64,000 nucleotides of DNA from Microbacterium hominis (GTDB taxonomy: Bacteria > Actinomycetota > Actinomycetes > Actinomycetales > Microbacteriaceae), in contig NZ_CP054038.1 in assembly GCF_013282805.1 (NCBI RefSeq), positions 3,658,001 through 3,722,000 on the forward strand, written 5' to 3'. This document shows, in pieces, positions 4,541 through 26,876 of this stretch. Position numbers and translations under genes: made by a program. Every line of letters starts with the position of its first letter. The first letter of the stretch is position 1. The notes below the pieces were generated by a model. It did not search any database and was not told the DNA's origin. It saw only the letters and a list, made by a program, of their open reading frames with translations.

Positions 4541-4557
4541 TTCCCGTCCAATGGGAA
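4541..4557. promoter_or_regulatory. putative IclR operator, pcaR-pcaH
   Basis: TTCCC-GTCCAAT-GGGAA, a perfect 5-bp inverted repeat with 7-bp spacer, in the divergent gap. Its core CCGTCCAATG matches CCGTTCAATG before pobA (6844-6860) and, on the opposite strand, before the second IclR gene (26860-26876). It lies 11 bp upstream of the regulator start and about 95 bp upstream of pcaH, so it could control both directions. Confidence 0.6.
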
Positions 4558-4568
4558 TCGGAGGCGTT

Positions 4569-5339
4569 GTGTGGCATTCTGCGAGGGTGGCGAACTCCCC
4601 CTCCGGCGACTCCGTGACCGACCGGCTCGTGCGCGTTCTCGAGACGTTCACGCCGACCCGCACCGCGCAGACGGCGGCCGAGATCGGCCGGCGCAGCGGC
4701 CTCCCGTCGTCGAGCGCGCACCGGATCGTCGGGGAGCTGGTGGATGCCGGCCTCCTCGAGCGCGACGGCGACCGGCGCATCCGCATCGGCATGCGCCTGT
4801 GGGAGCTGGCCACGCGTTCGTCGCACGCGCTGCGCCTGCGCCAGGCGGCCATGCCGTTCATGGAGCGCGTGCAGTCGCGCGTGCGGGAGCACACGCAGCT
4901 GGCGATCCTCGAGCAGGACGAAGCCCTGTTCCTCGAACGGCTGAGCGGACAGGGGGCGGGCTCGAACGTCACCCGCGTCGCCGGGCGCCTGCCCCTTCAC
5001 GCGTCGTCGTCGGGGCTGGTGCTTCTGGCCTTCGCCGACGCGGAGCTGCAGGAGCGGGTGCTCGGTGCGCCGCTGCGCGCCCTCACCCGCTCGACGCCCA
5101 CCGACCCGGCCGCGGTGCGCCGCAAGCTCGCCGAGGTGCGCACGCTCGGCCACGCGATCGCCCCCGGCTACATCGAGGAGGTCTCCACGGGGCTCGCCGT
5201 TCCCGTGCACGACGAGACCGGGGCGCCCGTCGCCGCGCTCTCGGTGGTGCTCCCTCGCGACGCGCAGACCGCCTACGCGCTCGAGGAGCTCTACCGCGCC
5301 GCCCGCGACATCGAGCGAGCCATGGGGTATCGACGCTGA
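4569..5339 (+). CDS. IclR-family regulator of the pca genes
   Basis: 256 residues from GTG at 4569, preceded by GGAGG at 4 nt; a GTG at 4587 is an alternative that would shorten it by 6 residues. The N-terminal winged helix spans TAAEIGRRSGLPSSSAHRIV; the C-terminal IclR effector domain follows, with RLPLHASSSGLVLLAF and the GYIEEVSTGLAVPV stretch. It probably binds protocatechuate or a related aromatic acid and controls the divergent pcaHGBDC operon, in the role of PcaR/PcaU. It is a clear paralogue of the IclR protein at 25985-26845: both share LRLWEL, PFM and RVR(E/Q)HTQL segments. Confidence 0.85.
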   Translation: MWHSARVANSPSGDSVTDRLVRVLETFTPTRTAQTAAEIGRRSGLPSSSAHRIVGELVDAGLLERDGDRRIRIGMRLWELATRSSHALRLRQAAMPFMERVQSRVREHTQLAILEQDEALFLERLSGQGAGSNVTRVAGRLPLHASSSGLVLLAFADAELQERVLGAPLRALTRSTPTDPAAVRRKLAEVRTLGHAIAPGYIEEVSTGLAVPVHDETGAPVAALSVVLPRDAQTAYALEELYRAARDIERAMGYRR

Positions 5340-5360
5340 CGCGGCCGCCCGGCTGCGACG

Positions 5361-6743
5361 TCAGAAGGGCGGCAGGTCGTCATCGCCCCTGTCGGCGGCC
5401 GGCACGGGCGGGCTCGGTCGGAAGACGGGGATCCGCCGTTCGGGGTTCACGACGTATCGTCGCCCCGTGGGCGAGGTCCATCGCACGGCGCCGCCGCTCG
5501 CGGGGAGCTGTTCGACCCTCCAGGTCGTGTTGTCCTTCACGAGATGATGGCCTTTGCAGAACGGCGCATTGTTCTCGAGCGAGGTTTCGCCACCGTCGGC
5601 CCAGCGGATCTGATGATCGATCTCGCATCGTGATGCCGGCATCCCGCACCCGGGACCCATGCATCGGTCGGCCCGCCACCTCACGAGCCTCTGCAACGCC
5701 GCCGGCGGCCGGTAGGAGTCTCGCCCGACCGACAGCACCGCGCCGGTCTCGGGGTGGGTGAGCACCCGCATCCAGCGGGTGTCGCCGCCGCACAGCTCAC
5801 GAGCACGGGAGATCGGAATCGGCCCGACGCCCTCGACCGTGGCCGGGTCGCTCGCACGGGCCGCGTCGTCGTCGAGCAGTGCGAGCGCGGGAACCGTCAC
5901 GACCACCGTGGCACGGATCCCCCGCGCCGTCGCGGGCGTCGCGTCGGTCGTTCCATCGATGAGCAGGTCGCAGAGCACATCGGCACGCACCTTGTCGAGC
6001 GTGCGCTGCTCGCCATCGCGCCCCGTGATGGTCTTCGCCATCGCGGTCGCGCGGCCGTGGATCGCCCGCAGCTCCACCTCGGGGGCGTGCAGGTGCAGTA
6101 CGCCCATGCCGGCGCCGGTCGATTCGACCACGACCCGCCGTTCCTGCACCGCCTGGCGGTACTGCTCCTCGAGGGTAGCGGCGAGCGCGGCGTCGACCAT
6201 CGCCCGCACGGCGCGACGGAACGTGCCGACCGCCTCGGCCTCGGCGACGGCGACCGCGCGCTCCACGATGTCGCCGCGCAGCGCGGCCGGCAGCCGGTCG
6301 ATCTCGTCGACGAGGACTTCGGCGTGCTTCAGCGTGATCCGTCCGCCGCCCAGCGACGAGAGCGCCTGCGGGTACCGGCACACCAGCGCCTCGGCGTGCG
6401 TGATCATGCGGCCCGCGGCGTGCTCGGTGATCCGCATGGCCGCGGCGAGCTCCAGCCGGATCGACCGTTCGGTGAGATCCGACATCGCTCCGTACCGCAC
6501 CCCGTGGGCCCCGAACCCGCTGTCGTCGGCCGCGGCGAGCGCCTCCCGCCGCATCCCGTGGATGCGCTCCAGTCGCTGCGCCGCGAACACGGCCTCCATC
6601 GTCGCCACCTCGGTCACCAGATCCACAGCATCCGGCACGACGACCGCGGAGAACTCCGCGTCGCTCATCCACACCGACTCATCGAGCTCGTCGGGGCCGT
6701 CCGCCGTCTCGAGATCGGCGGCCGGAGCGAGGGTCGAGGTCAT
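5361..6743 (-). CDS. DUF222 / HNH endonuclease domain protein (13E12-type)
   Basis: 460 residues from ATG (MTSTLAPAADLE). The N-terminal two thirds are the alpha-helical DUF222 region; the C-terminus is an HNH nuclease domain: CMGPGCGMPASRCEIDH, then WADGGETSLENNAPFCKGHH, giving the H-N-H set and paired cysteines. This family is repeated many times in actinobacterial genomes (the 13E12 repeat family of mycobacteria), and its exact substrate is unknown. A near-perfect LexA box lies 11 bp before the start, pointing to SOS control. It sits between two aromatic operons without obvious link to them. Confidence 0.88.
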   Translation of the reverse strand: MTSTLAPAADLETADGPDELDESVWMSDAEFSAVVVPDAVDLVTEVATMEAVFAAQRLERIHGMRREALAAADDSGFGAHGVRYGAMSDLTERSIRLELAAAMRITEHAAGRMITHAEALVCRYPQALSSLGGGRITLKHAEVLVDEIDRLPAALRGDIVERAVAVAEAEAVGTFRRAVRAMVDAALAATLEEQYRQAVQERRVVVESTGAGMGVLHLHAPEVELRAIHGRATAMAKTITGRDGEQRTLDKVRADVLCDLLIDGTTDATPATARGIRATVVVTVPALALLDDDAARASDPATVEGVGPIPISRARELCGGDTRWMRVLTHPETGAVLSVGRDSYRPPAALQRLVRWRADRCMGPGCGMPASRCEIDHQIRWADGGETSLENNAPFCKGHHLVKDNTTWRVEQLPASGGAVRWTSPTGRRYVVNPERRIPVFRPSPPVPAADRGDDDLPPF

Positions 6744-6754
6744 GCATCCAGAAT

Positions 6755-6769
6755 AGAACAGATGTTCGA
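6755..6769. promoter_or_regulatory. LexA (SOS) box
   Basis: AGAACAGATGTTCGA matches the actinobacterial SOS box CGAACRNRTGTTYGA at 14 of 15 positions; only the first base differs. It lies 11 bp upstream of the DUF222/HNH start, where bound LexA would block transcription. Confidence 0.75.
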
Positions 6770-6843
6770 ATGTGTCCAGAGTGTGATCGAGAGAGGATCG
6801 CGTCCGACGAAGGAGTCGGCGACCGTCGCCAGGTCCACGCGGC

Positions 6844-6860
6844 AACCCGTTCAATGAGAG
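6844..6860. promoter_or_regulatory. putative IclR operator upstream of pobA
   Basis: AACCCGTTCAATGAGAG contains the CCGTTCAATG core found in the other two aromatic promoters, in a less symmetrical dyad. It lies 67 bp upstream of the pobA start. Assignment rests on the shared core rather than on symmetry. Confidence 0.55.
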
Positions 6861-6927
6861 TGCGGCCTGGATGTCGAACCTCCGCGCGCACCATGAATCG
6901 CAGGCACCATGTCGAAGGAGACACCCC

Positions 6928-8100
6928 ATGACCGAGACCATCCGCACCCGCGTCGCGATCGTCGGCGCCGGACCGGCGGGGCTCGTGCTCTCGCACCTGC
7001 TCGCCGCGTCGGGCATCGAGTCGATCGTCGTCGATCAGCGCTCGCGCGAGGAGATCGAGACGACGATCCGCGCCGGCATCCTCGAGCAGGGGACGGTCGA
7101 GCTGCTCGCCGCGATCGACGGATCGCGCGTGCACACGGTCGGCTCCCGCCACGACGGCATCGAGCTGCGTTTCGACGGCGCCGGGCACCGCATCGACTTC
7201 GCCGACCTCGTCGGCCGCGCCGTGTGGCTCTACCCGCAGCACGAAGCGCTGAAGGACCTCATCGCCGCGCGGCTCGCGGCCGGACAGGACCTGCGCTTCG
7301 GCGTCACCGTGGCGTCGGTCGAGGGCGCCGACACGTCGTCGCCGCGCGTGCGCGCGACCGATCCGACGGGCGCCCCGCTCGAGATCGAGGCCGACTTCGT
7401 GGTCGGCGCCGACGGCTCGCGCTCGAGCGTGCGGGCTGCGGTCACCGGCGCGCACGGCGGCTACTTCCGCGAGTACCCGTTCGCGTGGTTCGGCATCCTG
7501 TGCGAGGCGCCGCCGAGCGCCGAGGAGCTCATCTACTCGAACTCACCCGACGGCTTCGCCCTCATCAGCCAGCGCTCCCCCACCGTGCAGCGCATGTACT
7601 TCCAGTGCGACCCGGAGGCCGACCCGCACGCGCTCAGCGAAGCCGAGATCTGGGACACGCTGCAGAAGCGGGTGCCCGGCACGACCCTCGCCGAGGGCCC
7701 GATCTTCCAGCGTGACGTGCTGCGGTTCCGCTCCTTCGTCGCGCGCGACCTGCGCCGGGGACGCGTGGCGATCGTCGGAGACGCCGCCCACACCGTGCCG
7801 CCGACGGGGGCGAAGGGCATGAACCTCGCGGTCGCCGACGTGATCCTGCTGGCGCGGGCGCTGGAGGCGCTGCTGCTGCGCGGCGACGAGGCCGGCATCG
7901 ACGGATGGGCGGATGCCGCGCGCCAGCGCATCTGGAAGGCGCAGCACTTCTCGTGGTGGATGACCTCGATGCTGCACGTGACACCGGACGCCACCGACTT
8001 CGACCGGCTGCGCCAGCTCGGCGAGCTGCGCACGGTCGTGGATTCGGACGCCGGCCGCGCCTACCTCGCCGAGGCGTACACGGGGTGGCCGCTGGACTGA
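6928..8100 (+). CDS. pobA: 4-hydroxybenzoate 3-monooxygenase
   Basis: 390 residues, ATG after GAAGGAG. An FAD monooxygenase turning 4-hydroxybenzoate into protocatechuate with NAD(P)H and oxygen. It follows the Pseudomonas enzyme closely: GAGPAG Rossmann motif at the N-terminus, GADGSRSSVR (DG motif), ELIYSN with the active-site Tyr201 equivalent, ISQRS with the Ser212/Arg214 pair that binds the carboxylate, GDAAHTVPPTGAKG for FAD and Pro293, and FSWWMTSMLH and EAYTGWP near the end (Tyr385 equivalent). The product feeds the pca operon upstream. Confidence 0.96.
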   Translation: MTETIRTRVAIVGAGPAGLVLSHLLAASGIESIVVDQRSREEIETTIRAGILEQGTVELLAAIDGSRVHTVGSRHDGIELRFDGAGHRIDFADLVGRAVWLYPQHEALKDLIAARLAAGQDLRFGVTVASVEGADTSSPRVRATDPTGAPLEIEADFVVGADGSRSSVRAAVTGAHGGYFREYPFAWFGILCEAPPSAEELIYSNSPDGFALISQRSPTVQRMYFQCDPEADPHALSEAEIWDTLQKRVPGTTLAEGPIFQRDVLRFRSFVARDLRRGRVAIVGDAAHTVPPTGAKGMNLAVADVILLARALEALLLRGDEAGIDGWADAARQRIWKAQHFSWWMTSMLHVTPDATDFDRLRQLGELRTVVDSDAGRAYLAEAYTGWPLD

Positions 8101-8118
8101 CCACCCCGCGCACGGCCG

Positions 8119-9413
8119 TCACTCGTAGCGCAGCGATTCCACCGGGTCGGCCTTCGCCGCCCGCCAGGCCGGGATCGTGCCGGCGAGGAACGCGATCACC
8201 ATCACGATGAGGATGATCGTCGCGATCGACACCGGGTCGAACGCGATGAGCGTCAGCCCCGCGAGATCCGCGAGCAGTCCCTGGGCGAGCGCTCCGCTGA
8301 GCGCGGTGCCCGCGACCATCGCGATGCCCACCCCGATCGCGCTGCCGAGGAACCCGAGGAAGACCGCTTCGAGGCTGAACAGTGAGAACACGCGCCCCGA
8401 CCCCATGCCCATGGCCTTCATGAGTCCGATCTCGCGAGTGCGCTCCTGCACCGACATCAGCAACGTGTTCACGATGCCGAAGCTCGCGGCGAGCAGCGCG
8501 ATGACCGCGAACGCATTGAGGACGAGCACGATGCCGTCGATCACGGTCGTGACCGCGCCGAGCTGGTCGGCCACGGTGGTGCCGGTGAAGCCCTCGTCGG
8601 CCAGGTCGTCCTTCAGCGCCTGGATCTCGTCCTCGGTCGCCGCCGCGTCGAACCACACGGTGGCCGACGCGTATCGATCGGCCTGCTCGGCCGGGATGCC
8701 GGCCGACTGCGTCTCGAACAGCGTGTCGGTGAGCGCATCGTTGAGCAGGATGCTCGACCCGAGCGGCGAGGCGAGCGTCTCCTCGGTGACCCCGGTGACG
8801 GTCGCCTCGATGATGTGCTGCTCACGCAGCGCATCGGTGATCGCGATCGAGATCGTCTCGCCGACGGCATCCGTGTCGGAATCGAACCCGAGCGCCTCCA
8901 CGTACTCCTGCGGGATCGCCACCTCGAAGGCGTCGGCGTCGGCATCGGGCTCCGCGCCCGCGGTGAGCAGGGTCGTCTGCCCGGGCACGAGGCTGCCGAC
9001 CTGGGCCGTGTACTTCGTGCCGGCGTCGTGGACGATGTAGTCGGGGCTGATGGCGCGGGCCGCCTGCACCTCGAACACGCCGTCGATCCCCTCGATCGCC
9101 TCGATGTCGTCGGGGGTCATGGCGATCACGGATCGGCCGGGGATGCCGGTGTCGACGGCATCCGGGTCGTACTCGAGCGGGCCGGTCTCGCCGGGGATGG
9201 CGCCGCCCTCGCTCTGCACCTTGGCGACCGACATCGCATCGGATGCGCCGACGCCGCTGAGGGTGTCGTCGATGTACGCGTTGATGCCGGTGCCGAGGCC
9301 GCTGGTGAGCGTGAGGGTGAACGCGCCGACGAAGATCGCGAGGATCGTGAGGGTCGATCGGGTCTTGGAGCGGAACGTGTTGGCGCCCGCCGTGGTGATC
9401 AGGTCTGCGGTCT

Positions 9414-9417
<4 letters not shown>
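8119..9417 (-). CDS. ABC transporter permease, FtsX/MacB type
   Basis: 432 residues. One N-terminal membrane segment (STLTILAIFVGAFTLTLTSGL), a large extracytoplasmic MacB-type domain of about 240 residues rich in Asp and Thr, then three C-terminal membrane segments with ERTREIGLMKAMGMG, the FtsX coupling motif. Together with the ATPase upstream (ATGA overlap) it should form a mechanotransmission-type exporter or envelope-stress system rather than an importer. The adjacent two-component system probably controls it. The substrate cannot be read from the sequence. Confidence 0.88.
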
Positions 9418-10151
<734 letters not shown>

Positions 10152-10206
10152 CCTTCCAGCCTCGCGAGCGCTGCCCGTTCGCGAATCCTCCGGGCGCGGC
10201 ATCCTC

Positions 10207-10224
10207 ATACCGCAGCCGCGGTAT
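10207..10224. promoter_or_regulatory. palindrome between response regulator and ABC genes
   Basis: ATACCGC-AGCC-GCGGTAT, perfect 7-bp arms and 4-bp spacer, about 55 bp before the GTG start of the ATPase. The half GCGGTATTC recurs at 12109-12117 upstream of the sensor kinase, which suggests the response regulator binds both places. Confidence 0.6.
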
Positions 10225-10229
10225 TCGGA

Positions 10230-10889
10230 TCAGCCGCCCGGGGTCAGCAGGCCGGTCTCGTACGCGACGATCACCAGCTGCGCGCGGTCGTGGGCGTGCA
10301 GCTTCGTCATGATGCGGTTCACGTGCGTCTTGGCGGTGTGCGGGGAGATGAACAGCTCATCGGCGATCTCCTGGTTCGAGCGGCCCCGCCCGACGAGCAT
10401 GAGCACCTCCTGCTCGCGCTCCGTCAGCGGCGCGAGGCGGCTGCGATCGACGGTCGCCGGTGCGGGGTGCAGGTGCTTGGCGATGAGCGCGCGCGTCGCG
10501 GTCGCCGACAGCAGCGAGTCGCCGGCGTGCACCGCTTCGACCGCGCGCACGATGTCGTCGGGCTCGGCCCCCTTGCCGATGAATCCGCTCGCGCCGGCGC
10601 GCATGGCGGAGACGACGTACTCGTCCTCCTCGAAGGTGGTGAGGATCAGCACGCGTGTCTCAGCAAGCGCGGGGTCGTCGCAGATGCGCTCGGTAGCCTG
10701 GATGCCGTCGAGGTGCGGCATCCGGATGTCCATGAGCACCACATCCGGCCGCAGAGCCCGCGCCTGCGCCACGGCCTCGACGCCGTCGACGGCCTCGCCC
10801 ACCACGGACACCCCGTCTGCCCCGGAGAGGATGTCGGTCACGGCCTGGCGGATCAGCGCCTGGTCGTCGACCACGAGCACCCCGATCAC
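10230..10889 (-). CDS. LuxR/NarL-family response regulator
   Basis: 219 residues. Receiver domain with acidic pair DD8-9, phospho-acceptor Asp54 (VVLMDIRMP) and the conserved Lys in GASGFIGKGA; C-terminal LuxR-type helix-turn-helix from LTEREQEVL through HTAKTHVNRIMTKL. It overlaps the sensor kinase by 4 bp (ATGA). Its expected target is the ABC exporter just downstream, through the palindrome at 10207-10224. Confidence 0.92.
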   Translation of the reverse strand: MIGVLVVDDQALIRQAVTDILSGADGVSVVGEAVDGVEAVAQARALRPDVVLMDIRMPHLDGIQATERICDDPALAETRVLILTTFEEDEYVVSAMRAGASGFIGKGAEPDDIVRAVEAVHAGDSLLSATATRALIAKHLHPAPATVDRSRLAPLTEREQEVLMLVGRGRSNQEIADELFISPHTAKTHVNRIMTKLHAHDRAQLVIVAYETGLLTPGG

Positions 10890-12064
10890 GCGGAATCCCC
10901 CGTCGGCAGGGGAAGTCGGGCGGTGACGCGCCAGCCGCCGGGCGCCGACCCGGTCTCGACGACCCCGCGCACCGTCGCCACGCGCTCCCGCACGCCGACC
11001 AGTCCCCGCCGCGAGCCGGGTGATGTGGATGCCGCGCCCGCCGCCGTCGGATTCGTGACGACGACCGTGAGCGCGTCGTCCTGCACCGTGAGCAGCACGT
11101 GGGCGCGGTGCTCGTCGCCGTGCTTGTGGGCGTTCGTAAGAGCCTCCTGGATCACCCGGTACGCCACGAGCGACACCGCGCTGGGCGCACGGGAGAGATC
11201 ACCCTCGACGCGCACCGACACGTCGAGCCCGGCATCCGCGAACTGCCTCGTCAGCTCGTCGAGTCGTGCGAGGTTCGGTCCGGGCGCGGTCGCCGGGTCG
11301 TCGTCGGCGGCCCGCAGGACGTCGAGGAGCCCGCCGATCTCGCCGAGCACCGTGCGGGAGGCCGAGCGGATCGTCGCGAGCGCCTCCTTCGCCTTCTCGG
11401 GGCGCTCGTCGACCGCCGCCGAGGCGACCCCCGCATTGAGGCTGATCACCGAGATCTGGTGGGCGACCGCGTCGTGGAGGTCGCGCGCGATGCGCAGGCG
11501 CTCCTCCGACACGCGACGCCGCGCTTCGGCCTCGCGTGTGCGCTCGGCCCGCTCGGCGCGATCGGTGATGGCCTCGATGTACTCGCGGCGTGAGCGCGTG
11601 GCGTCACCGAGGGCCGAGCCGATCGCGGTCGTGAGCGCGAACTGCACCAGGCGCGGGTCGGGGCCGTCGCCGACCCAGGCGATCAGGCCGAACCCGGTGA
11701 CGACGGCGAGGGTGATGCCGGTGGCGACGAGACCTTCGCGGCGCGGCATCCGATTCGTCACCTGGAACATCGCGACGGCGACGGCGAGCGAGAGGGCCTG
11801 GGGCAGACCGCCGACGACGGCGGCGAGCGCGAAGATGCCGAGCTCGACGCCGAGGATGGGCAGCGGCCACCGGCGCCGGAAGGGGAGCGCGACCGCGGCC
11901 AGGATCACGAGACCGATCGTCGCCGGTGAGGGCCACTCGATGCTGCGGCCGGGCTCGGTCACGAGAGTGAGCGGCACCATGATGACGACGATCAGCGCGT
12001 CGACCGCCCAGGCCGGCACGCGCGGCTGCGGGTCCTTCGGCATCGCGGGCACGGTGGCGGTCAT
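10886..12064 (-). CDS. sensor histidine kinase, HisKA_3 type
   Basis: 392 residues from ATG at 12062-12064. Five hydrophobic segments between residues 20 and 130 form a membrane sensor with no large extracellular loop. A coiled linker precedes the dimerisation motif with the phospho-accepting His197 (RIARDLHDAVAHQ). The HATPase_c domain carries VIQEALTNAHKH (N box) and RRGLVGVRERV (G box). This intramembrane-sensing layout is common for kinases paired with ABC exporters that respond to cell-envelope stress. A TAGGGG hexamer right before the start suggests a leaderless message. Confidence 0.9.
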   Translation of the reverse strand: MTATVPAMPKDPQPRVPAWAVDALIVVIMVPLTLVTEPGRSIEWPSPATIGLVILAAVALPFRRRWPLPILGVELGIFALAAVVGGLPQALSLAVAVAMFQVTNRMPRREGLVATGITLAVVTGFGLIAWVGDGPDPRLVQFALTTAIGSALGDATRSRREYIEAITDRAERAERTREAEARRRVSEERLRIARDLHDAVAHQISVISLNAGVASAAVDERPEKAKEALATIRSASRTVLGEIGGLLDVLRAADDDPATAPGPNLARLDELTRQFADAGLDVSVRVEGDLSRAPSAVSLVAYRVIQEALTNAHKHGDEHRAHVLLTVQDDALTVVVTNPTAAGAASTSPGSRRGLVGVRERVATVRGVVETGSAPGGWRVTARLPLPTGDSA

Positions 12065-12091
12065 GCCCCTAGTGTGGCCCGGCTGCGAGGT

Positions 12092-18516: not shown

Positions 18517-18569
18517 CCGCTCGCTCTCGCAAGGCCGTCATCCTCTCGAGCCCTGGTGTCGCATCGGTC

Positions 18570-19208: not shown

Positions 19209-20896
19209 AGGCGGGTGTCCCAGCGGCCGACGAACGCATCAACCGGCGATGTGCCAGGGAACGGCGACTCCCCGCGCAGGGCAGCCAGCATCGACTCCAC
19301 GACGGCGGGCGACGATCCGTACGTGTTGATGTACGTGCGCACGCGCGGCACGTCGAGCAGGTGGTAAGGATTCTCGAGCGAGATGAAGACGGTCGGCACG
19401 GTCGGCACGTACGCCGGCACGTTCGCACCCATGGGCGACGCCCACTCGATGCGGACCACGGTCTGATTGGACTTCGTCGAGAGGTTCGCGAGGTAGACGA
19501 TGAGGTCGTGGTTGTCCGTGACATCGCTCGTGGGCGCGGCCAGACCCTCCCAGCCGCCCCCGGGGACGAATCGGGTGACCTCGTGCCCTGCGGCGACCAG
19601 CTCGGCGACGATCTGCTCGATCGCGCCCGCCTTCGCGCCCTGCCCGATGGGGTTGGCGCCGCCCTCGATGTCGTACACGAGGACGCGGGGGTAGCGCTCG
19701 GCCGAGATCGGGAGCACCCCCGCCTCCTCCTTCACCAGCGTGAGCGACTCCTGGGCGACCGCGCGCGCCACCGCGCGGTGATCCTCGCTCCCGATCTTCA
19801 CCGCAGTCGCGTCGGGCAGCGTCCGGCCGCGGTGAATACCGAGGGACGCCTTGAGCGCGAGCACGCGTGTGACCGCTTCGTCGAGCCGCTCCCGGGTGAG
19901 GATGCCCGACTCGAGCCCCGCACGCATGAAGGCGAAGTCCTCTTCCAGGTTCTTCGTGAACAGGAACATGTCACAGCCCGCCGCGATCACCCGCGGCACG
20001 GCCTCGCGGCGCGGGAGAACGGTGGCCATACCGGCCATCGTGGTCGAGTCCGAGACAATGAGGCCGTTGAAGCCGAGACGGTCGCGCAGGAGGTCGTTCA
20101 GCAGCTCCTCGGCCACCAGGCCCGGCATGATCTCCGAGTCGTGGATGCCGGGTCGCAGGGCGCGACTGTACTCGGGCAGCATGATGTGGCCGACCATGAT
20201 GGTCTTCGTTCCGGCCTCGATTCCTGCGCGATAGACCTCTCCGAAACTGGACTCCCACTCCTCGACGCCCATGGAGTTCACGGACGCCAGAAGGTGCTGG
20301 TCTCGCTCATCGACGCCGTCGCCGGGGAAGTGCTTGACCGAAGCTGCAACTCCTTCGGCTTGCAGGGATTCGACGTAGGCGGCCGTGAAGGCGGCGACGT
20401 CGTCGGCGTGGGCGCCGAAGGTGCGTGTGTTCGTGATCGGGTTGCGGAAGTTGAGGTCGATGTCGGCGACGGGCGTGAAGGCCCAGTTGATGCCGACCTC
20501 TCGGGCTTCGCGGGCGATGACCTGCGCAGCCTGGCGCACACGCTCGAGACAGCCGGTCGCTGCGAGGGCCATGTTGCTCCCCACGTGCGTCGCGCCGATG
20601 AGGGTCTGATCGGCACCGCCTTCGAGGTTGGCGGAGATGAGCAGCGGGACCTCGGCACTCTGTTGGAGCGTCGTCACGGCTTCGGCCGCCTCGGCGATCT
20701 CCATCGTGCGCAGCATCACCCCGCCCACGTGGAGCCCACGGGTGAGGTAGTTCAGGTAGCCGGGATCGTTCGTGTAGGTGATGAGGCAGAACAGCTGGCC
20801 GAGCTTCTGCTCATCGCTCATGCCGGCGAGGGTGTCGGACACCCACGAGACGTCCTCGTCGGTGAGCGAGAACGGGGCGGCGGCGAGGTCGATCAT
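19205..20896 (-). CDS. GH3 beta-glycosidase or glycoside phosphorylase, NagZ-like
   Basis: 563 residues from ATG at 20894-20896. GH3 N-terminal barrel with nucleophile Asp283 (LIVSDSTTMAGM) and a C-terminal sandwich domain from about residue 400. The segment KHFPGDGVDERDQH (188-201) keeps the Asp-x-His dyad (Asp199, His201) that serves as acid/base in the NagZ-type subgroup, some members of which (Cellulomonas fimi Nag3) act as phosphorylases. No signal peptide, so the substrate is imported. It overlaps the permease upstream and the HAD gene downstream by 4 bp each. Sugar specificity is not evident. Confidence 0.83.
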   Translation of the reverse strand: MIDLAAAPFSLTDEDVSWVSDTLAGMSDEQKLGQLFCLITYTNDPGYLNYLTRGLHVGGVMLRTMEIAEAAEAVTTLQQSAEVPLLISANLEGGADQTLIGATHVGSNMALAATGCLERVRQAAQVIAREAREVGINWAFTPVADIDLNFRNPITNTRTFGAHADDVAAFTAAYVESLQAEGVAASVKHFPGDGVDERDQHLLASVNSMGVEEWESSFGEVYRAGIEAGTKTIMVGHIMLPEYSRALRPGIHDSEIMPGLVAEELLNDLLRDRLGFNGLIVSDSTTMAGMATVLPRREAVPRVIAAGCDMFLFTKNLEEDFAFMRAGLESGILTRERLDEAVTRVLALKASLGIHRGRTLPDATAVKIGSEDHRAVARAVAQESLTLVKEEAGVLPISAERYPRVLVYDIEGGANPIGQGAKAGAIEQIVAELVAAGHEVTRFVPGGGWEGLAAPTSDVTDNHDLIVYLANLSTKSNQTVVRIEWASPMGANVPAYVPTVPTVFISLENPYHLLDVPRVRTYINTYGSSPAVVESMLAALRGESPFPGTSPVDAFVGRWDTRL

Positions 20897-21921
20897 GATG
20901 CGGATGCTCCGGTGGTGACGAGAGAGGACGGTGTCGAGCCGCCGCGAGCGCGGCCGGTGAGCGTGCGCCACCAGCGCGCGATGCGCTGCTCGTTGCTGAG
21001 GAAGATGAGGAACGCGACAAGGAGGAGCGCCGTGGTGACGGACTGGACGCTGCTTGTGAGGTTCATCGCCGAGTAGCCGAGCGCGATCACGGTCGTGCTG
21101 AAGGCGCCCAGCAGATATCCGAGCTTGTCGTTCGAGTACCGTCCGATCCACCCACCGACGAACATGGGCAAGAAGGCCGTGAACATGATGCCGATCGTCG
21201 CGAAGTTGAGGTTGCCCGCCTCGATGAAGCCGACCTGCGAAGCGAGGATGAGCCCGACGACGCTCATCAGCCCGCCGCTGGCCGCATAGGTCGCGATCGC
21301 GTTGCCCCGCTCCTTCGCGCCGGCGGCCACCGCCGCGTTCTGCCCGGTGATGAGCGCACGGTAGTCGAAGCCGAATCGGCTGCGGTCGAACAGCACATAC
21401 ACCACGCCGAGCGCGACCCCGACGACCAGGATCATGTTGATCGGGCTCTTCGCGAACGCCGTGAGGTCGTTGCGCAGCACGAAGCTGATGTTCGCTCCGC
21501 CGCTGATGGTGAAGGCGATGCCCTCGTAGAGGAGTGTGACTCCGAGCGAGCTCACCAAGGGTGAGATGCGCAGGAGTACGTAGACGAGCCCCGAGAACGC
21601 ACCGAGGCCGAGGCCCGCGACGACGGTGATGAACGCCATCATCGGGAATCCTCCGCCGAGATCGAGCGCGGTGCTCGTGCCGATGACCGCGGACAGCGTG
21701 GCCATCGCTCCGAGTGAGAAGTCGAAGCGGCCGCTGTTGAGGTTGATGGCGAGCGCCATCGCCGTGAGCGACGTGATGGCCACACCTCGGGTCAGCAGCA
21801 GGAAGCTGTCGCCCGTGCCGAACAGGGAGACACCGTTGATCGCGCACAGCGCGGAGACGATCGCGACCACCCCGATCGGGATGATAAGTGTTCCCGTCGC
21901 CCGTCGCATGAAGCCAGCCAT
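20893..21921 (-). CDS. sugar ABC transporter permease, RbsC type (second)
   Basis: 342 residues from ATG after AGGGAGGCACCG. About nine hydrophobic segments and the branched-chain/ribose permease pattern: INLNSGRFDFSLGAMATLSAV (the motif in which Asp follows the first cytoplasmic turn), GLVYVLLRISPLVSSLG, and a late NFATIGIMFTAFLPMFVGG. It pairs with the other permease (23213-24274), the ATPase and the lipoprotein. Order here is ATPase, permease, binding protein, permease. Confidence 0.88.
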   Translation of the reverse strand: MAGFMRRATGTLIIPIGVVAIVSALCAINGVSLFGTGDSFLLLTRGVAITSLTAMALAINLNSGRFDFSLGAMATLSAVIGTSTALDLGGGFPMMAFITVVAGLGLGAFSGLVYVLLRISPLVSSLGVTLLYEGIAFTISGGANISFVLRNDLTAFAKSPINMILVVGVALGVVYVLFDRSRFGFDYRALITGQNAAVAAGAKERGNAIATYAASGGLMSVVGLILASQVGFIEAGNLNFATIGIMFTAFLPMFVGGWIGRYSNDKLGYLLGAFSTTVIALGYSAMNLTSSVQSVTTALLLVAFLIFLSNEQRIARWWRTLTGRARGGSTPSSLVTTGASAS

Positions 21922-21953
21922 CTGCGGTGCCTCCCTGTCCTTTCCGGTGTGTG

Positions 21954-23162
21954 TCAGCCGACGAGGTCGGCGTAGGTGTACTGGCTCACGAAGGTTGCGA
22001 AGTCGTCGTAGGTCGCACCCGATGCGATCCACGGCTCCAGCGCGGTCTTGTCGTAGACGGGGCTCTCGACGCTGTCGGCAGCAAGGATCTGATCGAACTC
22101 CTCGATCGAGGTGGCGACCCAGTATCCCTGGCCCAGCGCGATCGCCGCGTCGCCGTCGGCGCGCAGCGGCTCGCCCTGGACGGCACTGAGGGTGGCGGCG
22201 AAGATCGGACCGTTGATCGAGGTGAACTTTCCGGCGAGGTAGGCGAGCGCGCCCGACTCCATCGCGGCCTTGTTGTCCTCGGTGTACGCGTCGATGTCAC
22301 CGATCTTGATGTCGGTGCCTGCGACAGCGGCACCCACCACGGCGAACCCGGTGCCCGCGGCGAGGATCGCATCGGGCTGCGCGGCGACCATGCCGGCCAT
22401 GTTGGCCTGCCACGCCGAATCGCTGAAGTTCCAGGCCTCGAGATATCCGGTCAGGCTGTACACGTCGGACTCGAAGTCAGCGATCTTGATCGTGCCGTCC
22501 TGGTAGATCTTGCCCAGGATCGCGCCCGGGTCCTTCTGGCCGCCGTACGTGGTCGAAGGCTCCTCCGCGAGTGCCGCGAGAATGCCCGCCGTGCGGTGGA
22601 TGTGCATGTCGAGGTAGTAGGGGATGCCCGCACCGAAGAGGCCGAAGGAGGTGTCCCCCTCCTCGACGAAGAACTGCGCCATGTCGTACCCCGCCTGGAA
22701 CTCGATGTCGAGGCTCGGGCCGATCGCGCCCACGTAGTACTCGTAGTCCTTGTAGGTCTCGTAGTCCTCGTCGGAGAGCGTGCCGGTGGCCACGGCGTAG
22801 TAGACGCCGGCATCCTCGGCCATCTCGATCTGCGCGGGCCGATCGGCCGACGCGAACGAGATGACGGCCTTGCAGTTGTTGGCGATGAAGTTCTCCATCG
22901 CGGACTTCTCGGCGTCGGCGTCGGCGAGCTCGTCCGAGTAGACGAACTCGACGGGGAAGTTCTCCTGCACGTACTCCGTGTAGTAGTCCTTGAAGCCGAG
23001 CGCTTCGGACGAGGTCGCGTCGGAGACGAGGACGCACATCTTCACCGGGTCGGCGGAGGCGTCGCCGCCTGCCGAGCCCGTGCTGCCCGCGCAGCCGGTG
23101 AGGGCGAGCGACAGTCCGACCACGGCGGAGGCGCCGAGTGCGATGCTGCGGGTGATTCTCAT
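21954..23162 (-). CDS. sugar ABC transporter substrate-binding lipoprotein
   Basis: 402 residues from ATG after AAGGGAACACC. Signal peptide MRITRSIALGASAVVGLSLA ends in lipobox LTGC with Cys24 as lipid anchor, followed by a Ser/Gly/Ala linker. The mature part has the two-lobe type I periplasmic-binding fold used with RbsA-type transporters. Aromatic residues (YYTEYV, YYVGAIG, YYLDMH) could stack on sugar rings. It lies between the two permease genes, so it serves this importer. The ligand is probably a small oligosaccharide or glycoside cleaved by the GH3, GH39 or GH78 enzymes. Confidence 0.87.
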   Translation of the reverse strand: MRITRSIALGASAVVGLSLALTGCAGSTGSAGGDASADPVKMCVLVSDATSSEALGFKDYYTEYVQENFPVEFVYSDELADADAEKSAMENFIANNCKAVISFASADRPAQIEMAEDAGVYYAVATGTLSDEDYETYKDYEYYVGAIGPSLDIEFQAGYDMAQFFVEEGDTSFGLFGAGIPYYLDMHIHRTAGILAALAEEPSTTYGGQKDPGAILGKIYQDGTIKIADFESDVYSLTGYLEAWNFSDSAWQANMAGMVAAQPDAILAAGTGFAVVGAAVAGTDIKIGDIDAYTEDNKAAMESGALAYLAGKFTSINGPIFAATLSAVQGEPLRADGDAAIALGQGYWVATSIEEFDQILAADSVESPVYDKTALEPWIASGATYDDFATFVSQYTYADLVG

Positions 23163-23212
23163 TGGTGTTCCCTTCATTGGGTGGGTTCTCGGAGGTGCGA
23201 GCCGGGCGCGCG

Positions 23213-24274
23213 TCAGCGCGGGAGGACCTTGCTGCGGAAGCCGATGGTGGCGACCCATACGATCGCGAGGAACAGCACGGCCCGCACGATCTGGGCGATG
23301 CCGTTCCCGGCGGATGTGGTGGAGAGCAGCGTGGTCATGGTCTGGTTGAGGAAGGCCATCGAGAGCCCTCCGATGAGCGCCGCGTAGATGCGGCTGCGCG
23401 GCCCGCCGGAGATCGGCATGCCGCCGAACACCATCGCGACGAGGATGTTCATTCCGATGTCGCCGGCGCTCATCGTCGTCAGGGTCGGCGTGCGGAGCAC
23501 GGTGAGGAAGGCGCCGAGTCCCACGCCGAGCCCCGCGATCGCGAATGCGGCGATCGCGGTCTTCTTCATCGACACGCCGGTGAGCTTGGCGGTGACGGGG
23601 TTGCCGCCGATGAGCTTCTCGACCCTGCCGAGTCGAGTGAAGGAGAACAGCAGCACACACAGTCCGATGAACGCACCGGCGACGATGAGCTTCATCCACA
23701 GCGTGTCGTACTCCCGTGCGAAGGAGCTGTCGATGCGGATCTGTGCGCCGCCGGTGGTCTGCACGAGCGCGACGGCCACCGCTCCCAGAACAGAGAGCAT
23801 CGCGACAGTGGTGACGAAGACGGGCAGATCGAAGACGGCAGCAAGCACCGCACTGATCAGGGAGGTCGTGACCGCCGTCACCACGCACGCCAGGAGCATG
23901 GCCCAGAGGTCGCCCGTCGCGTTGAAGACGAGCGCTCCCACCATCGCGGAGACCAGCGTCGACGCACCCAGGCTGATGTCGAACGAGCCCATCGAGAAGA
24001 TGAAGATGGCGCCCGTGGCGATGATGATGATGATGACGGACTGGTTGATGAGCGTCTGCAGGCTGAAGGCCATGTTGATGCCCTGCCATGACCCGACGAC
24101 GACGAACGCAACGGCCAGGACGACCAGTCCGGCGAGCGGAGCGAGCTCGGCGGCGAACGTGGCCCAGCGGGCGCGGTTGCGGGCTTTGGTGTCGACCTCC
24201 GGCTCGACGAACTTGTCGTCGACCGACGTGATGACCGGATCCTTCACGCCGGTGGCGCTGCTCAGATCATGCAT
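23213..24274 (-). CDS. sugar ABC transporter permease, RbsC type (first)
   Basis: 353 residues. A long hydrophilic N-terminus of about 40 residues precedes around nine membrane segments; FSMGSFDISLGASTLVSAMV is the conserved RbsC-type motif and GMPISGGPRSRIYAALIGG the EAA-like loop facing the ATPase. It overlaps the ATPase gene by 13 bp, which indicates coupling. It probably forms a heterodimer with the permease at 20893-21921. Confidence 0.87.
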   Translation of the reverse strand: MHDLSSATGVKDPVITSVDDKFVEPEVDTKARNRARWATFAAELAPLAGLVVLAVAFVVVGSWQGINMAFSLQTLINQSVIIIIIATGAIFIFSMGSFDISLGASTLVSAMVGALVFNATGDLWAMLLACVVTAVTTSLISAVLAAVFDLPVFVTTVAMLSVLGAVAVALVQTTGGAQIRIDSSFAREYDTLWMKLIVAGAFIGLCVLLFSFTRLGRVEKLIGGNPVTAKLTGVSMKKTAIAAFAIAGLGVGLGAFLTVLRTPTLTTMSAGDIGMNILVAMVFGGMPISGGPRSRIYAALIGGLSMAFLNQTMTTLLSTTSAGNGIAQIVRAVLFLAIVWVATIGFRSKVLPR

Positions 24275-25761
24275 TCGATGATCTCCATCTCGTTGAGGTC
24301 GGCGCTGCGCTCGAACTCGCGCACCACCTGACCGTCCTTCATGATGAGGAGGCGGTCGCTCATGCCCATGAGCTCGGTCATCTCCTCGGAGACGATGACG
24401 ATCGCCTTGCCTTCGTTCTTGAGGTCGGTCATCAGCCGGTACATCGCCTGCTTGACCCCCACATCGACGCCGCGGGTGGGGCAGTCGAGGATGAGCACCT
24501 CGGTGCCGCAGGCGATCCACTTGCCGAAGACGACCTTCTGCTTGTTCCCGCCCGAAAGCGTCGAGACGACCGTTTCGGCGCTCGGCGCCTTGATCTCCAG
24601 CTGGGCCATCGGGTCTGCGACGTACGCCGTCTCCGCGCGCGAGGTGATGAGCCCCGCACGGCCACGGCCGATGATCCGCAGACCCGCGCTGGCGATGTTG
24701 TCCCGGATGCTCGCCGTCAGACTCAGGGACTCCGTGTCCCGGTCCTTCGAGACGTAGCCGAGGGATGCGCGCACCGCTCGCTGCTCACTGGTGATGCGTC
24801 GCCCCTGCGCGGTCACCTGGCCCGAGTCGACACGGATGGCACCGAACAGCGCCTTGCCCAGCTCGTGCATGCCGCTGTGGCTGAGCCCTCCGATGCCGAG
24901 GATCTCACCGCTGCGCACCGACAGGCTGACGTCCCGCACCTTGTCGCCGACGCTGACGTGCTCCGCCTCGAGCACGATTTCCGAACCCCACGAGGGTGTC
25001 TGGTCCTCGCGATAATAGTGCCCCTCGAGGTTGCGTCCGATCATGGCCGCACGGATGTCGTCCTCGTCGAACTCGTGCTTGTCGAAGGTGCGGATGATAT
25101 CGCCGTCGCGCAGCACCGTCAGTCGATCGCAGACCGACATGATCTCGTCGAGATCATGCGAGATGAAGATGACCGAGCCGCGGGACTTCTGCTCGTCCAT
25201 GAGCCGGTACAGCAGATCGCGACCGTCCTGGGACAGAGCGGTGGTGGTCTCATCGACGACGACGACCTTCGGACGGTGCATCATCACGCGCGCGAGCTCG
25301 ACGAGCTTGCGCGTCTGGATGTCGAGCGATCCGGTCATGGCGGCCGGGTCGATGTCGGGGATGCCGATCGCGGCGAGCGCCTGGCGGCCGGCATCGTGCA
25401 GGGCGCGCCGGTCGACGATGCCGAACCGCGAGAAGCGCCGGGTGTCGCCGAGGAAGAGATTCTCTGCGACGGACACTCCCGACACGGTCCCCGCTTCCTG
25501 CACGATCATGCCGACGCCGGCTGCGAGTGCCTCGTTGACGGTCGACGGCGCCCAGCGCTCGCCCTGGAAGTCGATCGCTCCGCTGTCGGCGACCTGCTGC
25601 CCGGCGACGATCGAGGTGAGCGTCGACTTGCCGGAGCCGTTCTCGCCGATCAGGCCGTGGATCTCGCCGTCGCGCAATTCGAAATCCACGTTCTTGAGCG
25701 CGCGCACGACACCGAAGGACTTGGATAGGTCCGCGATCGTGAGTACGACGTCGTTCGTCAT
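24262..25761 (-). CDS. sugar ABC transporter ATP-binding protein, RbsA type
   Basis: 499 residues with two ABC domains in one chain. The first has a complete Walker A (GLIGENGSGKST, about residues 37-48) and VVVDETTTAL; the second has a degenerate Walker A (GGLSHSGMHELG) but an intact signature LSGGNKQKV and Walker B region LILDCPTRGVDVG, the usual asymmetry of RbsA/MglA proteins. First gene of the glycoside operon, ATG after GAGAGGCTG. Two interleaved palindromes lie 40-67 bp upstream. Confidence 0.9.
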   Translation of the reverse strand: MTNDVVLTIADLSKSFGVVRALKNVDFELRDGEIHGLIGENGSGKSTLTSIVAGQQVADSGAIDFQGERWAPSTVNEALAAGVGMIVQEAGTVSGVSVAENLFLGDTRRFSRFGIVDRRALHDAGRQALAAIGIPDIDPAAMTGSLDIQTRKLVELARVMMHRPKVVVVDETTTALSQDGRDLLYRLMDEQKSRGSVIFISHDLDEIMSVCDRLTVLRDGDIIRTFDKHEFDEDDIRAAMIGRNLEGHYYREDQTPSWGSEIVLEAEHVSVGDKVRDVSLSVRSGEILGIGGLSHSGMHELGKALFGAIRVDSGQVTAQGRRITSEQRAVRASLGYVSKDRDTESLSLTASIRDNIASAGLRIIGRGRAGLITSRAETAYVADPMAQLEIKAPSAETVVSTLSGGNKQKVVFGKWIACGTEVLILDCPTRGVDVGVKQAMYRLMTDLKNEGKAIVIVSEEMTELMGMSDRLLIMKDGQVVREFERSADLNEMEIIECMI

Positions 25762-25800
25762 GGCGCAGCCTCTCTGCTGTCGGGTAAAGCCTGCGTATCC

Positions 25801-25828
25801 ATGTTTCGTCGCACGAAACATGTGCGAC
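25801..25828. promoter_or_regulatory. two interleaved palindromes before the sugar ABC operon
   Basis: ATGTTTCGT-CGC-ACGAAACAT (25801-25821) has perfect 9-bp arms. GTCGCAC-GAAACAT-GTGCGAC (25808-25828) has perfect 7-bp arms and shares 14 bp with it. They sit 40-67 bp upstream of the ATPase start. This is a strong operator candidate for the neighbouring IclR protein, the AraC-GH39 fusion, or an outside regulator. The overlap of two symmetries could let two dimers compete or stack. Confidence 0.7.
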
Positions 25829-25950
25829 AACGAGCGTTGCTACCGCGTTCGCGGGAAGGAATTGCGGCCGGGCGCGCGGCTCGACACCCACTTCCGCGCC
25901 CGACGAGATATCAGGTTGCGGCGATCGAGCAGCCGCCAGGTGAAGAAAAT

Positions 25951-25972
25951 GAGCCTCGATCCAGGGAGGCTC
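25951..25972 (-). terminator. terminator after the second IclR gene
   Basis: On the minus strand GAGCCTC-N8-GAGGCTC is followed by ATTTTCTTC, a stem with a T-rich tail, 13 bp after the IclR stop. It separates the regulator from the sugar ABC operon on the same strand. The other strand also has a T-rich tail (GCTTTCTTCT). Confidence 0.75.
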
Positions 25973-25984
25973 GCTTTCTTCTCC

Positions 25985-26845
25985 TCACTCCTTCGGTGCG
26001 GCTGTCCGGTGCGCGAAGTAGTCGAGTGTCGCCGTGGAACTGCTGATCAGCGGACCGAACACCGGCGTGCGCCCGCGCACGGCATCCGGCAGCGAGGCAT
26101 CCTGCAGGGCTGCGGCGAGCGCAGACGCCGCCTGCGCGAGGAGTTCGATCGTGGGCGCCGGGTCCGCACCGTCGTTCGGCACGACGACGCCCAGAGCCGC
26201 GAAAGGGTGCCGGTTGGGCGCCATGACCGGCACCGCGATGCCGCGCGACCCCTCGTGGATGAAGCCGTCGGCCACGACGAAGCCGTCCGCGCGTGCGCGG
26301 CGAAGCCGACAGACGAGAGCGTCCTCGCCTCGAATCGCGGCCGGTGTCGGCGTCGGCCAGCCCGTTGCGACGACGTCGTCGAGAACGGCCCGTTCCGCGT
26401 GTGCGAGGAGGATCAGGCCGCTGGAGCTGAGCGGCAGCGGCATCCGCCCCCCGACCAGCGTCGCGTTGATCACGGCATCCCGCGTCGACATCCGCTCGAT
26501 GAACAGCACGTCGCGCCCACTGAGGATCCCCAGCTGGGTGTGCTGACGCACGCGTGTGTGCACGGCGGCCATGAACGGCCGGGCTATCTCCCGCAGCCCG
26601 AACCCTCCCGGTGTGCGCGACCCCAGTTCCCAGAGGCGCAGTCCGAGTCGGTAGGCGCCGTCAGGCGTCCGCTCGACGAGCCGTTCACGCTCGAGCTCGG
26701 CCACCAGCCGGTGAGCGGTGGCGTGGGCGAGACCCGATCTCTGGGTGATCTGCGCGAGCGTGAGGAAGGGGGTGAGGGCATCGAATGCGTCGAGCACGCG
26801 CAAGTGCCGCTGTAGGACGGACTCTCCATTCGATCCACGCGCCAC
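25985..26845 (-). CDS. IclR-family regulator of the P450/reductase genes
   Basis: 286 residues, GTG start at 26843-26845. Winged helix TLAQITQRSGLAHATAHRLVAE, then the IclR effector domain with RMPLPLSSSGLILLAH and GFIHEGSRGIAVPV. It resembles the pca regulator at 4569-5339, sharing LRLWEL, ARPFM and RVRQHTQL. A GATAAT box 6 bp before the GTG suggests a leaderless message, with the dyad at 26860-26876 where a -35 box would lie, hence autoregulation. Its terminator implies a single-gene unit; the divergent reductase/P450 pair is the likely main target. Confidence 0.85.
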   Translation of the reverse strand: MARGSNGESVLQRHLRVLDAFDALTPFLTLAQITQRSGLAHATAHRLVAELERERLVERTPDGAYRLGLRLWELGSRTPGGFGLREIARPFMAAVHTRVRQHTQLGILSGRDVLFIERMSTRDAVINATLVGGRMPLPLSSSGLILLAHAERAVLDDVVATGWPTPTPAAIRGEDALVCRLRRARADGFVVADGFIHEGSRGIAVPVMAPNRHPFAALGVVVPNDGADPAPTIELLAQAASALAAALQDASLPDAVRGRTPVFGPLISSSTATLDYFAHRTAAPKE

Positions 26846-26859
26846 GCAACGAGATTATC

Positions 26860-26876
26860 TGTCCATTGAACGGACA
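26860..26876. promoter_or_regulatory. putative IclR operator, iclR-reductase
   Basis: TGTCC-ATTGAAC-GGACA, a perfect 5-bp inverted repeat with 7-bp spacer. Its reverse strand reads TGTCCGTTCAATGGACA, holding CCGTTCAATG as at pobA and, with one change, at pcaH. It is 14 bp from the IclR start and about 76 bp from the reductase start. Confidence 0.65.

What the first reader, a model, noticed from the sequence alone, without database searches (positions are those of the whole stretch)
4541..26876. One IclR-type operator motif links the P450, pobA and pca promoters across 22 kb
Seen in sequence: TTCCCGTCCAATGGGAA at pcaR/pcaH (4541), AACCCGTTCAATGAGAG at pobA (6844), and TGTCCGTTCAATGGACA read on the minus strand at iclR/reductase (26860). 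All keep CCGTYCAATG, and two are clean dyads. Each lies in the promoter of a step of the same route. Two paralogous IclR genes adjoin two of the sites. Inference: one or both IclR proteins co-regulate demethylation, hydroxylation and ring cleavage as a single regulon.
Basis: partly seen in the sequence, partly recalled or inferred. Interest (0 to 1): 0.85.

Follow-up and report, generated by a model that had tools for sequence, protein, structure and literature searches.

The report
Two sister switches for aromatic degradation
Three promoters of one plant-aromatic breakdown route in a Microbacterium-like soil bacterium carry near-identical control sites, but comparison with related bacteria shows two versions of the site, one for the core pathway and one for the demethylation step, most likely read by two sister regulators rather than by one.

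Summary
Observation confirmed: the three dyads are where stated, and their core CCGTYCAATG occurs only 5 times in the 3.9-Mb genome. The one-regulon reading is half right. In relatives, pcaH/iclR1 and pobA promoters share operator nTCCC-RTTSAAY-GGGAn: C3/G15 in 30 of 30 pobA and 27 of 30 iclR1 promoters. Its core tracks iclR1, even where pobA lies 25-42 kb away, and is altered in all 6 pobA-bearing genomes without iclR1. The P450 promoter carries a second version, WTTCC-RTTSAAY-GGAAW (here TGTCC...GGACA): T3/A15 in all 11 of 16 IclR2-linked P450 loci with a clear core. Matrices from relatives separate the classes. IclR1 and IclR2 fall in separate clades; IclR2-type genes usually adjoin LigM/DesA-like O-demethylases (26 of 30). 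All three structural promoters place a -10-like element about 28 nt after the operator, which suggests activation. Best reading: two parallel circuits, IclR1 for pca/pob, IclR2 for demethylation. Cross-binding is neither shown nor excluded. A new member of a known kind.

The parts
3061..3630 (-). pcaG, protocatechuate 3,4-dioxygenase alpha
   Evidence: TIGR02423 182.5 bits, cut-off 126.25
3630..4445 (-). pcaH, protocatechuate 3,4-dioxygenase beta
   Evidence: TIGR02422 338.6 bits, cut-off 296.4
4507..4512 (-). -10-like GAGCAT of pcaH, 28 nt after the operator
   Evidence: xAxxxT at exactly 28 nt in 24 of 27 loci, L024, L025 and L035 left out
4541..4557 (.). class A operator TTCCC-GTCCAAT-GGGAA, shared by pcaH and iclR1
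   Evidence: C3 in 28 and C3/G15 in 27 of 30 iclR1 promoters of the genus; rank 1 with external matrix
4587..5339 (+). iclR1, likely regulator of pca/pob
   Evidence: IclR_C and HTH_IclR; nearest solved chain 5h1a, E 1.7e-80; clade support 1.0
5361..6743 (-). DUF222-domain gene between iclR1 and pobA; relatives seen have the two genes close together
   Evidence: PF02720; coordinates of iclR1 and pobA in relatives, by eye
6844..6860 (.). class A operator AACCC-GTTCAAT-GAGAG of pobA (imperfect)
   Evidence: C3/G15 in 30 of 30 pobA promoters; rank 2 in the window, though about 12 such scores are expected per genome
6889..6894 (+). -10-like CACCAT of pobA, 28 nt after the operator
   Evidence: xAxxxT at 27, 28, 29 nt counted 7, 17, 6 times in 30 loci
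6928..8100 (+). pobA, 4-hydroxybenzoate 3-monooxygenase
   Evidence: NF006091 472.5 bits, cut-off 351; TIGR02360 352.5 bits, below its 538.7
25985..26845 (-). iclR2, likely regulator of the P450 operon
   Evidence: IclR domains; clade of O-demethylase-linked regulators
26854..26859 (-). -10-like GATAAT of iclR2, directly next to the operator
   Evidence: read; autorepression is inference
26860..26876 (.). class B operator TGTCC-GTTCAAT-GGACA (minus strand) shared by iclR2 and the reductase/P450 operon
   Evidence: T3/A15 in 11 of 11 IclR2-linked P450 loci with a core of at most 1 mismatch, this one included; 5 more have no such site; rank 1 with external class B matrix
26905..26910 (+). -10-like TACGCT of the reductase/P450 operon, 28 nt after the operator
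   Evidence: 9 of 10 chosen loci at exactly 28 nt
26953..27936 (+). P450 reductase with C-terminal 2Fe-2S domain (PbdB-like)
   Evidence: Fer2; oxidoreductase-type NCBIfam hits, all below cut-off
27958..29193 (+). CYP199-type P450, likely 4-methoxybenzoate O-demethylase (substrate inferred)
   Evidence: best chain 9g9q 'CYP199' E 2e-162, CYP199A4 8.7e-130

Best explanation
Two paralogous IclR regulators run two parallel circuits of one route with closely related operators. IclR1 binds class A dyads (nTCCC-RTTSAAY-GGGAn) at pcaH/iclR1 and, in trans, at pobA; it most likely activates pcaHG and pobA and represses itself. IclR2, from a clade tied to O-demethylases, binds the class B dyad (TCC-RTTSAAY-GGA) at iclR2/reductase and does the same for the CYP199 operon. 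At all three structural promoters the operator ends 28 nt before a -10-like element (operator centre near -49 if the -10 lies at -12 to -7), a placement that suits an activator, while towards the regulator genes it overlaps the promoter. The +/-6 base pair (C:G or T:A) would help to keep the two circuits apart. Shown: operators, conservation, class split, spacing, clades. Inferred: which protein binds, activation, ligands (4-hydroxybenzoate or a precursor), substrate of the P450.
For: Core-only scan with positions 3 and 15 left free: C3/G15 in 30 of 30 pobA and 27 of 30 iclR1 promoters; T3/A15 in 11 of 11 IclR2-linked P450 loci with at most 1 core mismatch, the window included, plus G141, which has no adjacent iclR, and in 5 of 6 further IclR2-type loci at that threshold (L220, L225, L228, L231, L233; L224 fails). 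Within G132 and G141 pobA has C3/G15 and the P450 T3/A15; in G123 the P450 site is degenerate but T3/A15 by eye. Class-specific matrices. The core tracks iclR1: 5 of 5 further pobA promoters in genomes with iclR1 have at most 1 core mismatch (three of them far from iclR1), 0 of 6 in genomes without it. Clades with support 1.0 each. 26 of 30 IclR2-type loci have a LigM/DesA-like gene in the 1.5-kb flanks. 28-nt spacing. Precedent: in Rhodococcus opacus separate IclR proteins control pobA (HbaR1, activator, 4-hydroxybenzoate), vanillate (VanR1, activator) and the pca operon (PcaR, repressor) (PMC9582017, passages seen).
Against: No binding or expression data. Loci are related, so counts are not independent. 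Four of the 6 pobA promoters without iclR1 keep C3/G15 arms around a changed core, each with another IclR-like gene nearby, so C3/G15 is not a mark of IclR1 alone. The own pobA site is imperfect (AACCC...GAGAG), and its matrix score would be met about 12 times per genome by chance. The classes differ by one symmetric base pair over a long shared core, so cross-binding is plausible; the class B matrix ranks the pca site third in the window. No recognition-helix residue cleanly separates the clades at the published contact positions (position 27 is Pro in 30 of 30 IclR1 but Ala 18/Pro 12 in IclR2). Of 16 IclR2-linked P450 loci 5 gave no site at the threshold (L117, L121, L122, L161, L189; L121 and L122 show a degenerate T3/A15 dyad); of 10 P450 loci without an iclR hit only G141 has one. 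Only 8 of 30 genus IclR2-type genes have such a site in the 200 bp upstream. R. opacus PcaR is a repressor, so activation at pcaH is not assured.
Confidence: 0.7

Rival explanations
1. One regulon: IclR1 and/or IclR2 each bind all three sites and switch demethylation, hydroxylation and ring cleavage together.
For: Shared exact core at 3 of 5 genome-wide occurrences; same 28-nt promoter geometry at all three; paralogous proteins; the class B matrix still ranks the pca site third in the window.
Against: Operator classes go with the gene in relatives; the class A matrix sees the P450 site at background level; the P450 at 67% identity or more is in only 4 of 149 genus genomes while pobA is in 73, so the pca/pob circuit does not depend on it; in G123 and G132 the P450 lies beside its own iclR2.
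Confidence: 0.17
2. Same two regulators, but both act as plain repressors released by pathway compounds.
For: IclR proteins are generally taken as repressors and R. opacus PcaR represses pcaH (PMC9582017 passages); at the iclR genes the operator overlaps or adjoins the promoter.
Against: Operator ends 28 nt upstream of the -10-like element with nearly fixed spacing at the structural genes; R. opacus HbaR1 and VanR1 activate.
Confidence: 0.22
3. The shared core is chance or a generic IclR signature without function at one or more of the three sites.
For: With one mismatch the core is at chance density; the core matches the family-wide consensus.
Against: A core with at most 2 mismatches in 57 of 60 genus promoters of the two genes and 28-nt spacing.
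Confidence: 0.04

Closest known systems
IclR homologue with PDB entry 5h1a (same sequence in 7cuo, 7dqb); Mi-IclR of Microbacterium sp. HM58-2 (name and strain recalled)
   Same: Nearest solved relative of IclR1 over nearly its whole length (E 1.7e-80) and of IclR2 (E 6.8e-45). 4-hydroxybenzoate as ligand is recalled, not seen in a call.
   Different: Described for a hydrazidase (recalled); its operator and any link to pca/pob were not seen in any call.
HbaR1, VanR1 and PcaR of Rhodococcus opacus PD630 (PMC9582017, passages)
   Same: IclR proteins for 4-hydroxybenzoate, vanillate and protocatechuate steps; HbaR1 and VanR1 are activators.
   Different: There pobA and pca have separate regulators; here pcaH and pobA share an operator class whose core tracks one protein.
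PobR/PcaU of Acinetobacter baylyi
   Same: IclR regulators of 4-hydroxybenzoate/protocatechuate use (PMC8222616; activation is recalled).
   Different: Operators TTGTCCGATSATCGGACAR and TTTGTTCGATWATCGMACAMA; the NCBIfam PcaR/PcaU/PobR model scores 119 and 113 against a cut-off of 284.75.
IclR group-1 motif subgroups WTT-11-AAW and TGT-11-ACA; GenR site ATTCC-N7(5)-GGAAT (PMC8222616)
   Same: Class B sites of relatives fit WTT-11-AAW/GenR, and the own P450 site TGT-11-ACA, apart from the central base.
   Different: Class A has C instead of the T found at that place in all four published main subgroups.
PbdA/PbdB of Rhodococcus jostii RHA1 and CYP199A4
   Same: CYP199-type P450 plus reductase; start of the abstract of PMC11530827 seen in listings.
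   Different: A term search of that paper for regulator, operon or transcription had no hit; regulators beside most other actinobacterial relatives are nearer IclR1 and form a further group.

Membership tests
IclR family (both regulators) | HTH_IclR plus IclR_C domains above gathering score | tested here: met
   both proteins
NCBIfam PcaR/PcaU/PobR subfamily TIGR02431 | score at or above 284.75 bits | tested here: not met
   119 and 113 bits
IclR group-1 operator (PMC8222616) | odd-length dyad with TYCRY...RYGRA arms | tested here: inconclusive
   class B and the own P450 site fit apart from the centre; class A departs at the T
single pca-pob-P450 regulon | same operator class at all three promoters | tested here: not met
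   one symmetric base pair, so cross-binding stays open
single pca-pob regulon under IclR1 | operator core present with iclR1, altered without it | tested here: met
   5 of 5 against 0 of 6, plus 30 of 30; relatedness not corrected, and the arms stay C3/G15 in 4 of the 6
single pca-pob regulon under IclR1 | binding of IclR1 to both sites | not testable with these tools
   needs gel shift or DAP-seq
CYP199 / PbdA | sequence kinship over the whole length | tested here: met
CYP199 / PbdA | O-demethylation of 4-methoxybenzoate | not testable with these tools
   enzyme assay needed

The most novel reading that the evidence does not exclude
A one-base-pair address code: two IclR paralogue clades share promoter architecture and operator core, and only the symmetric base pair at +/-6 tells core ring-degradation promoters (C:G) from O-demethylation promoters (T:A), so that demethylase modules of unlike chemistry (P450 or tetrahydrofolate-dependent) can be plugged in under the second address. 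In this genome IclR2 has a recognition-helix start (A-H-A-T) unlike the other 29 sampled, and the P450 operator an unusual G/C at +/-7, which may be a matched change.
Probability: 0.35. Interest if true: 0.55.

Novelty: new member of a known kind. Interest (0 to 1): 0.4.

Why it matters
It gives a concrete, testable operator code for lignin-type aromatic degradation in Microbacterium and relatives, predicts the regulator of pobA/pcaHG and of CYP199 and LigM-type demethylases, and warns that a shared IclR core motif alone does not prove a shared regulon. Paralogue pairs whose operators differ by one base pair are also useful for biosensors that must not cross-talk.

Tried and rejected
Single regulon across three promoters: weakened by the class split. 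Extra members in the own genome: the class A pattern with up to 3 mismatches gave 115 hits against 65 for the reversed control (list cut at 100). Of the 9 hits with at most 2 mismatches, two are the two strands of the pca site and one is pobA; the perfect hit L045 lies, by eye, inside a reductase-like frame and L051 inside a hydrolase-like frame; L048 and L049 lie in likely coding frames; L047 and L050 were not resolved. The 106 hits with 3 mismatches were not inspected. The generic dyad YCCRTTSAAYGGR with up to 1 mismatch has 31 places against 6 for the reversed control: two exact, one inside a coding frame (L201) and the P450 site; of the 29 others, which include the pca and pobA sites, only L203-L215 (13) were looked at by a rough coding test, which covered 7 of 13. 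A recognition-helix residue explaining the +/-6 base pair: none clean. A dyad between the P450 and purU: not in the 29 other purU loci fetched. Operators of the P450 loci whose regulator is nearer IclR1: no common site under this pattern. Paper searches for such an operator or regulon and for IclR with P450 or other O-demethylases listed none that I recognised from titles and starts of abstracts; opened were only PMC8222616 (abstract, sections 13, 16, 19, passages), PMC9582017 (passages) and PMC11530827 (term search without hits). No structure prediction was run.
Full report
What was checked. The three sites are at the stated places. The exact core CCGTYCAATG occurs five times in the 3,908,277-base genome, against none for the pattern read backwards. 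Three of the five are the pcaH/iclR1, pobA and iclR2/reductase promoters; of the other two, L001 lies in a likely coding frame and L002, by eye, in a cupin-like frame. Allowing one mismatch makes the core unremarkable in the window (7 seen, 6.05 expected).

Genes. pcaG, pcaH and pobA pass curated models, pobA the subfamily model only. Next to pcaG lie pcaB-like and pcaD-like frames whose PcaB and PcaD models score below cut-off. The P450 is of the CYP199 type with a ferredoxin-bearing reductase. IclR1 and IclR2 are both IclR proteins, 44% identical; the nearest solved chain for both is 5h1a. The substrate of the P450 is inferred from its kin.

Class A operators. In the genus sample of 149 genomes, 71 have an IclR1 relative of at least 61% identity (counted) and 73 have pobA. 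I looked at the 30 best loci of each. I scanned only the core CCRTTSAAYGG, with positions 3 and 15 left free. Before pobA, 30 of 30 have a core with at most 2 mismatches, roughly 80-120 bp upstream, all C3/G15 (L093's printed -143 comes from a misplaced anchor, compare). Before iclR1, 27 of 30 have one, all C3 and 26 with G15 (L013 has A15); L035 adds a weaker C3/G15 dyad with 4 core mismatches; L024 and L025 have no site. So 28 of 30 are C3 and 27 of 30 are C3/G15. By eye, iclR1 and pobA are close neighbours in most genomes with both; here a DUF222 gene separates them.

The operator core tracks iclR1. All six pobA-bearing genomes without an IclR1 relative of that identity (G044, G050, G054, G089, G115, G140), and five further ones with it, were examined. 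With iclR1, 5 of 5 have a core with at most one mismatch, including G021, G026 and G142, where pobA lies about 42, 25 and 33 kb from iclR1 (coordinates); G142 has C3 but not G15. Without iclR1, 0 of 6 do. Four of these six (G050, G054, G089, G140) have a dyad with the same C3/G15 arms around another core (such as CACCGAGTG), each with an IclR-like gene at 31-35% identity to IclR1 or IclR2 in the stretch; G115 has no dyad; G044 has a weak one on a short contig of an incomplete genome.

Class B operators. P450 loci came from the genus and family searches, a genome-contig scan (80 loci kept of 256) and stretches of G123, G132 and G141. With the same core scan, 16 loci have a linked regulator nearer IclR2 (the window, L082, L115-L119, L121-L123, L125, L126, L128, L161, L170, L189). 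Eleven of these have a core with at most one mismatch, and all 11 are T3/A15; L117, L121, L122, L161 and L189 have none at this threshold, though L121 and L122 hold a degenerate T3/A15 dyad. Of 10 P450 loci where no iclR was found, only L083 (G141) has such a site, T3/A15. Some loci are near-duplicates (L116/L170, L125/L126, L118/L119, L117/L161). P450 loci whose regulator is nearer IclR1 show no common site; six exceptions at this threshold are mixed (L187 C3/G15; L164, L184, L186, L192 T3/A15; L181 C3/A15). In the genus, 8 of 30 IclR2-type genes have such a site within 200 bp upstream, two being the window and G132; of the other six, five are T3/A15 and L224 is not.

Separation of the classes. 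A matrix from 55 relatives' class A sites ranks the window sites 1 (4541), 2 (6844) and 5 (26860); about 12 and 109 scores as high as the pobA and P450 sites are expected per genome from a second-order Markov model, so the pobA site is not striking genome-wide on its own. A matrix from 11 relatives' class B sites, which I picked with L121 and L122 among them, ranks 26860 first (none as high in 1 Mb simulated), 4541 third and 6844 fourteenth. In a FastTree tree of 132 sequences IclR1 homologues form one clade (30 of 30, support 1.0), and IclR2 homologues with nine P450-linked ones another (39 of 39, support 1.0); the 63 regulators of other P450 loci group with IclR1 at 0.74. Of 30 genus loci with an IclR2-type gene, 26 have a LigM/DesA-like gene in the 1.5-kb flanks and 3 have the P450 (two have both). 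The LigM-like reference from G123 scores 557 bits on the DesA and 525.5 on the LigM model, below both cut-offs.

Promoter geometry. Counting from the operator's end, a hexamer of the form xAxxxT starts at 28 nt in 24 of 27 pcaH-side promoters (L024, L025, L035 left out), at 27, 28 and 29 nt 7, 17 and 6 times in 30 pobA promoters, and at 28 nt in 9 of 10 P450 promoters that I picked; 4-nt bins away from it hold 0-7 of 30 pobA, 1-4 of 27 pcaH and 0-2 of 10 P450 sequences. In the window the hexamers are GAGCAT (4507-4512, minus), CACCAT (6889-6894) and TACGCT (26905-26910). Towards the regulator genes the distance to the start codon varies (17-45 nt for iclR1), and for iclR2 a GATAAT directly follows the operator. 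Nearly fixed spacing upstream of the core promoter suggests activation of the structural genes; overlap suggests autorepression. Both are inferences.

Comparison with what is known. A survey of IclR motifs gives four main group-1 subgroups with T at the position here called 3 (PMC8222616). Class B fits that; class A does not. By my own mapping of positions, the survey links that base pair with HTH positions 27 and 30; in my set no residue there separates the clades cleanly. The shared core of the three window sites is thus mainly family signature plus common descent. In Rhodococcus opacus separate IclR proteins serve 4-hydroxybenzoate, vanillate and protocatechuate (PMC9582017, passages), which makes separate circuits here unsurprising; the sharing of one operator class by pcaH and pobA is the more unusual point.

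Verdict. Observation confirmed; interpretation half right. The best reading is two parallel IclR circuits with related operators and one promoter plan. Cross-binding remains open, and I have no binding or expression data. New member of a known kind, of moderate interest.

Noticed in passing
window 29307-29323: Dyad ATTCCG-CTTAC-CGGAAT between the P450 and purU; second-best class B matrix score in the window but not found in the 29 other purU loci fetched.
   Followed up: partly
window 5361-6743: A DUF222-domain gene lies in opposite orientation between iclR1 and pobA, which are, by eye, close neighbours in most relatives with both.
   Followed up: partly
L217-L245 (unnamed genus genomes): IclR2-type regulators sit beside LigM/DesA-like O-demethylase genes in 26 of the 30 loci L216-L245; five genomes (G049, G052, G062, G101, G130) hold two such regulators within about 4 kb.
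   Followed up: partly
L278, L279, L280, L281: pobA promoters of four genomes without iclR1 carry a dyad with another core (CTCCCAGTGAGTGAGAA, TTCCCACCGAGTGGGAA twice, ATCCCACTCACTGGGAG), each with another IclR-like gene in the stretch: possible regulator replacement with operator change.
   Followed up: no
window 29390-30271: purU (formyltetrahydrofolate deformylase) directly follows the P450; one-carbon disposal next to a demethylase may be coincidence, as purU is present in 57 of 59 genus genomes searched.
   Followed up: partly
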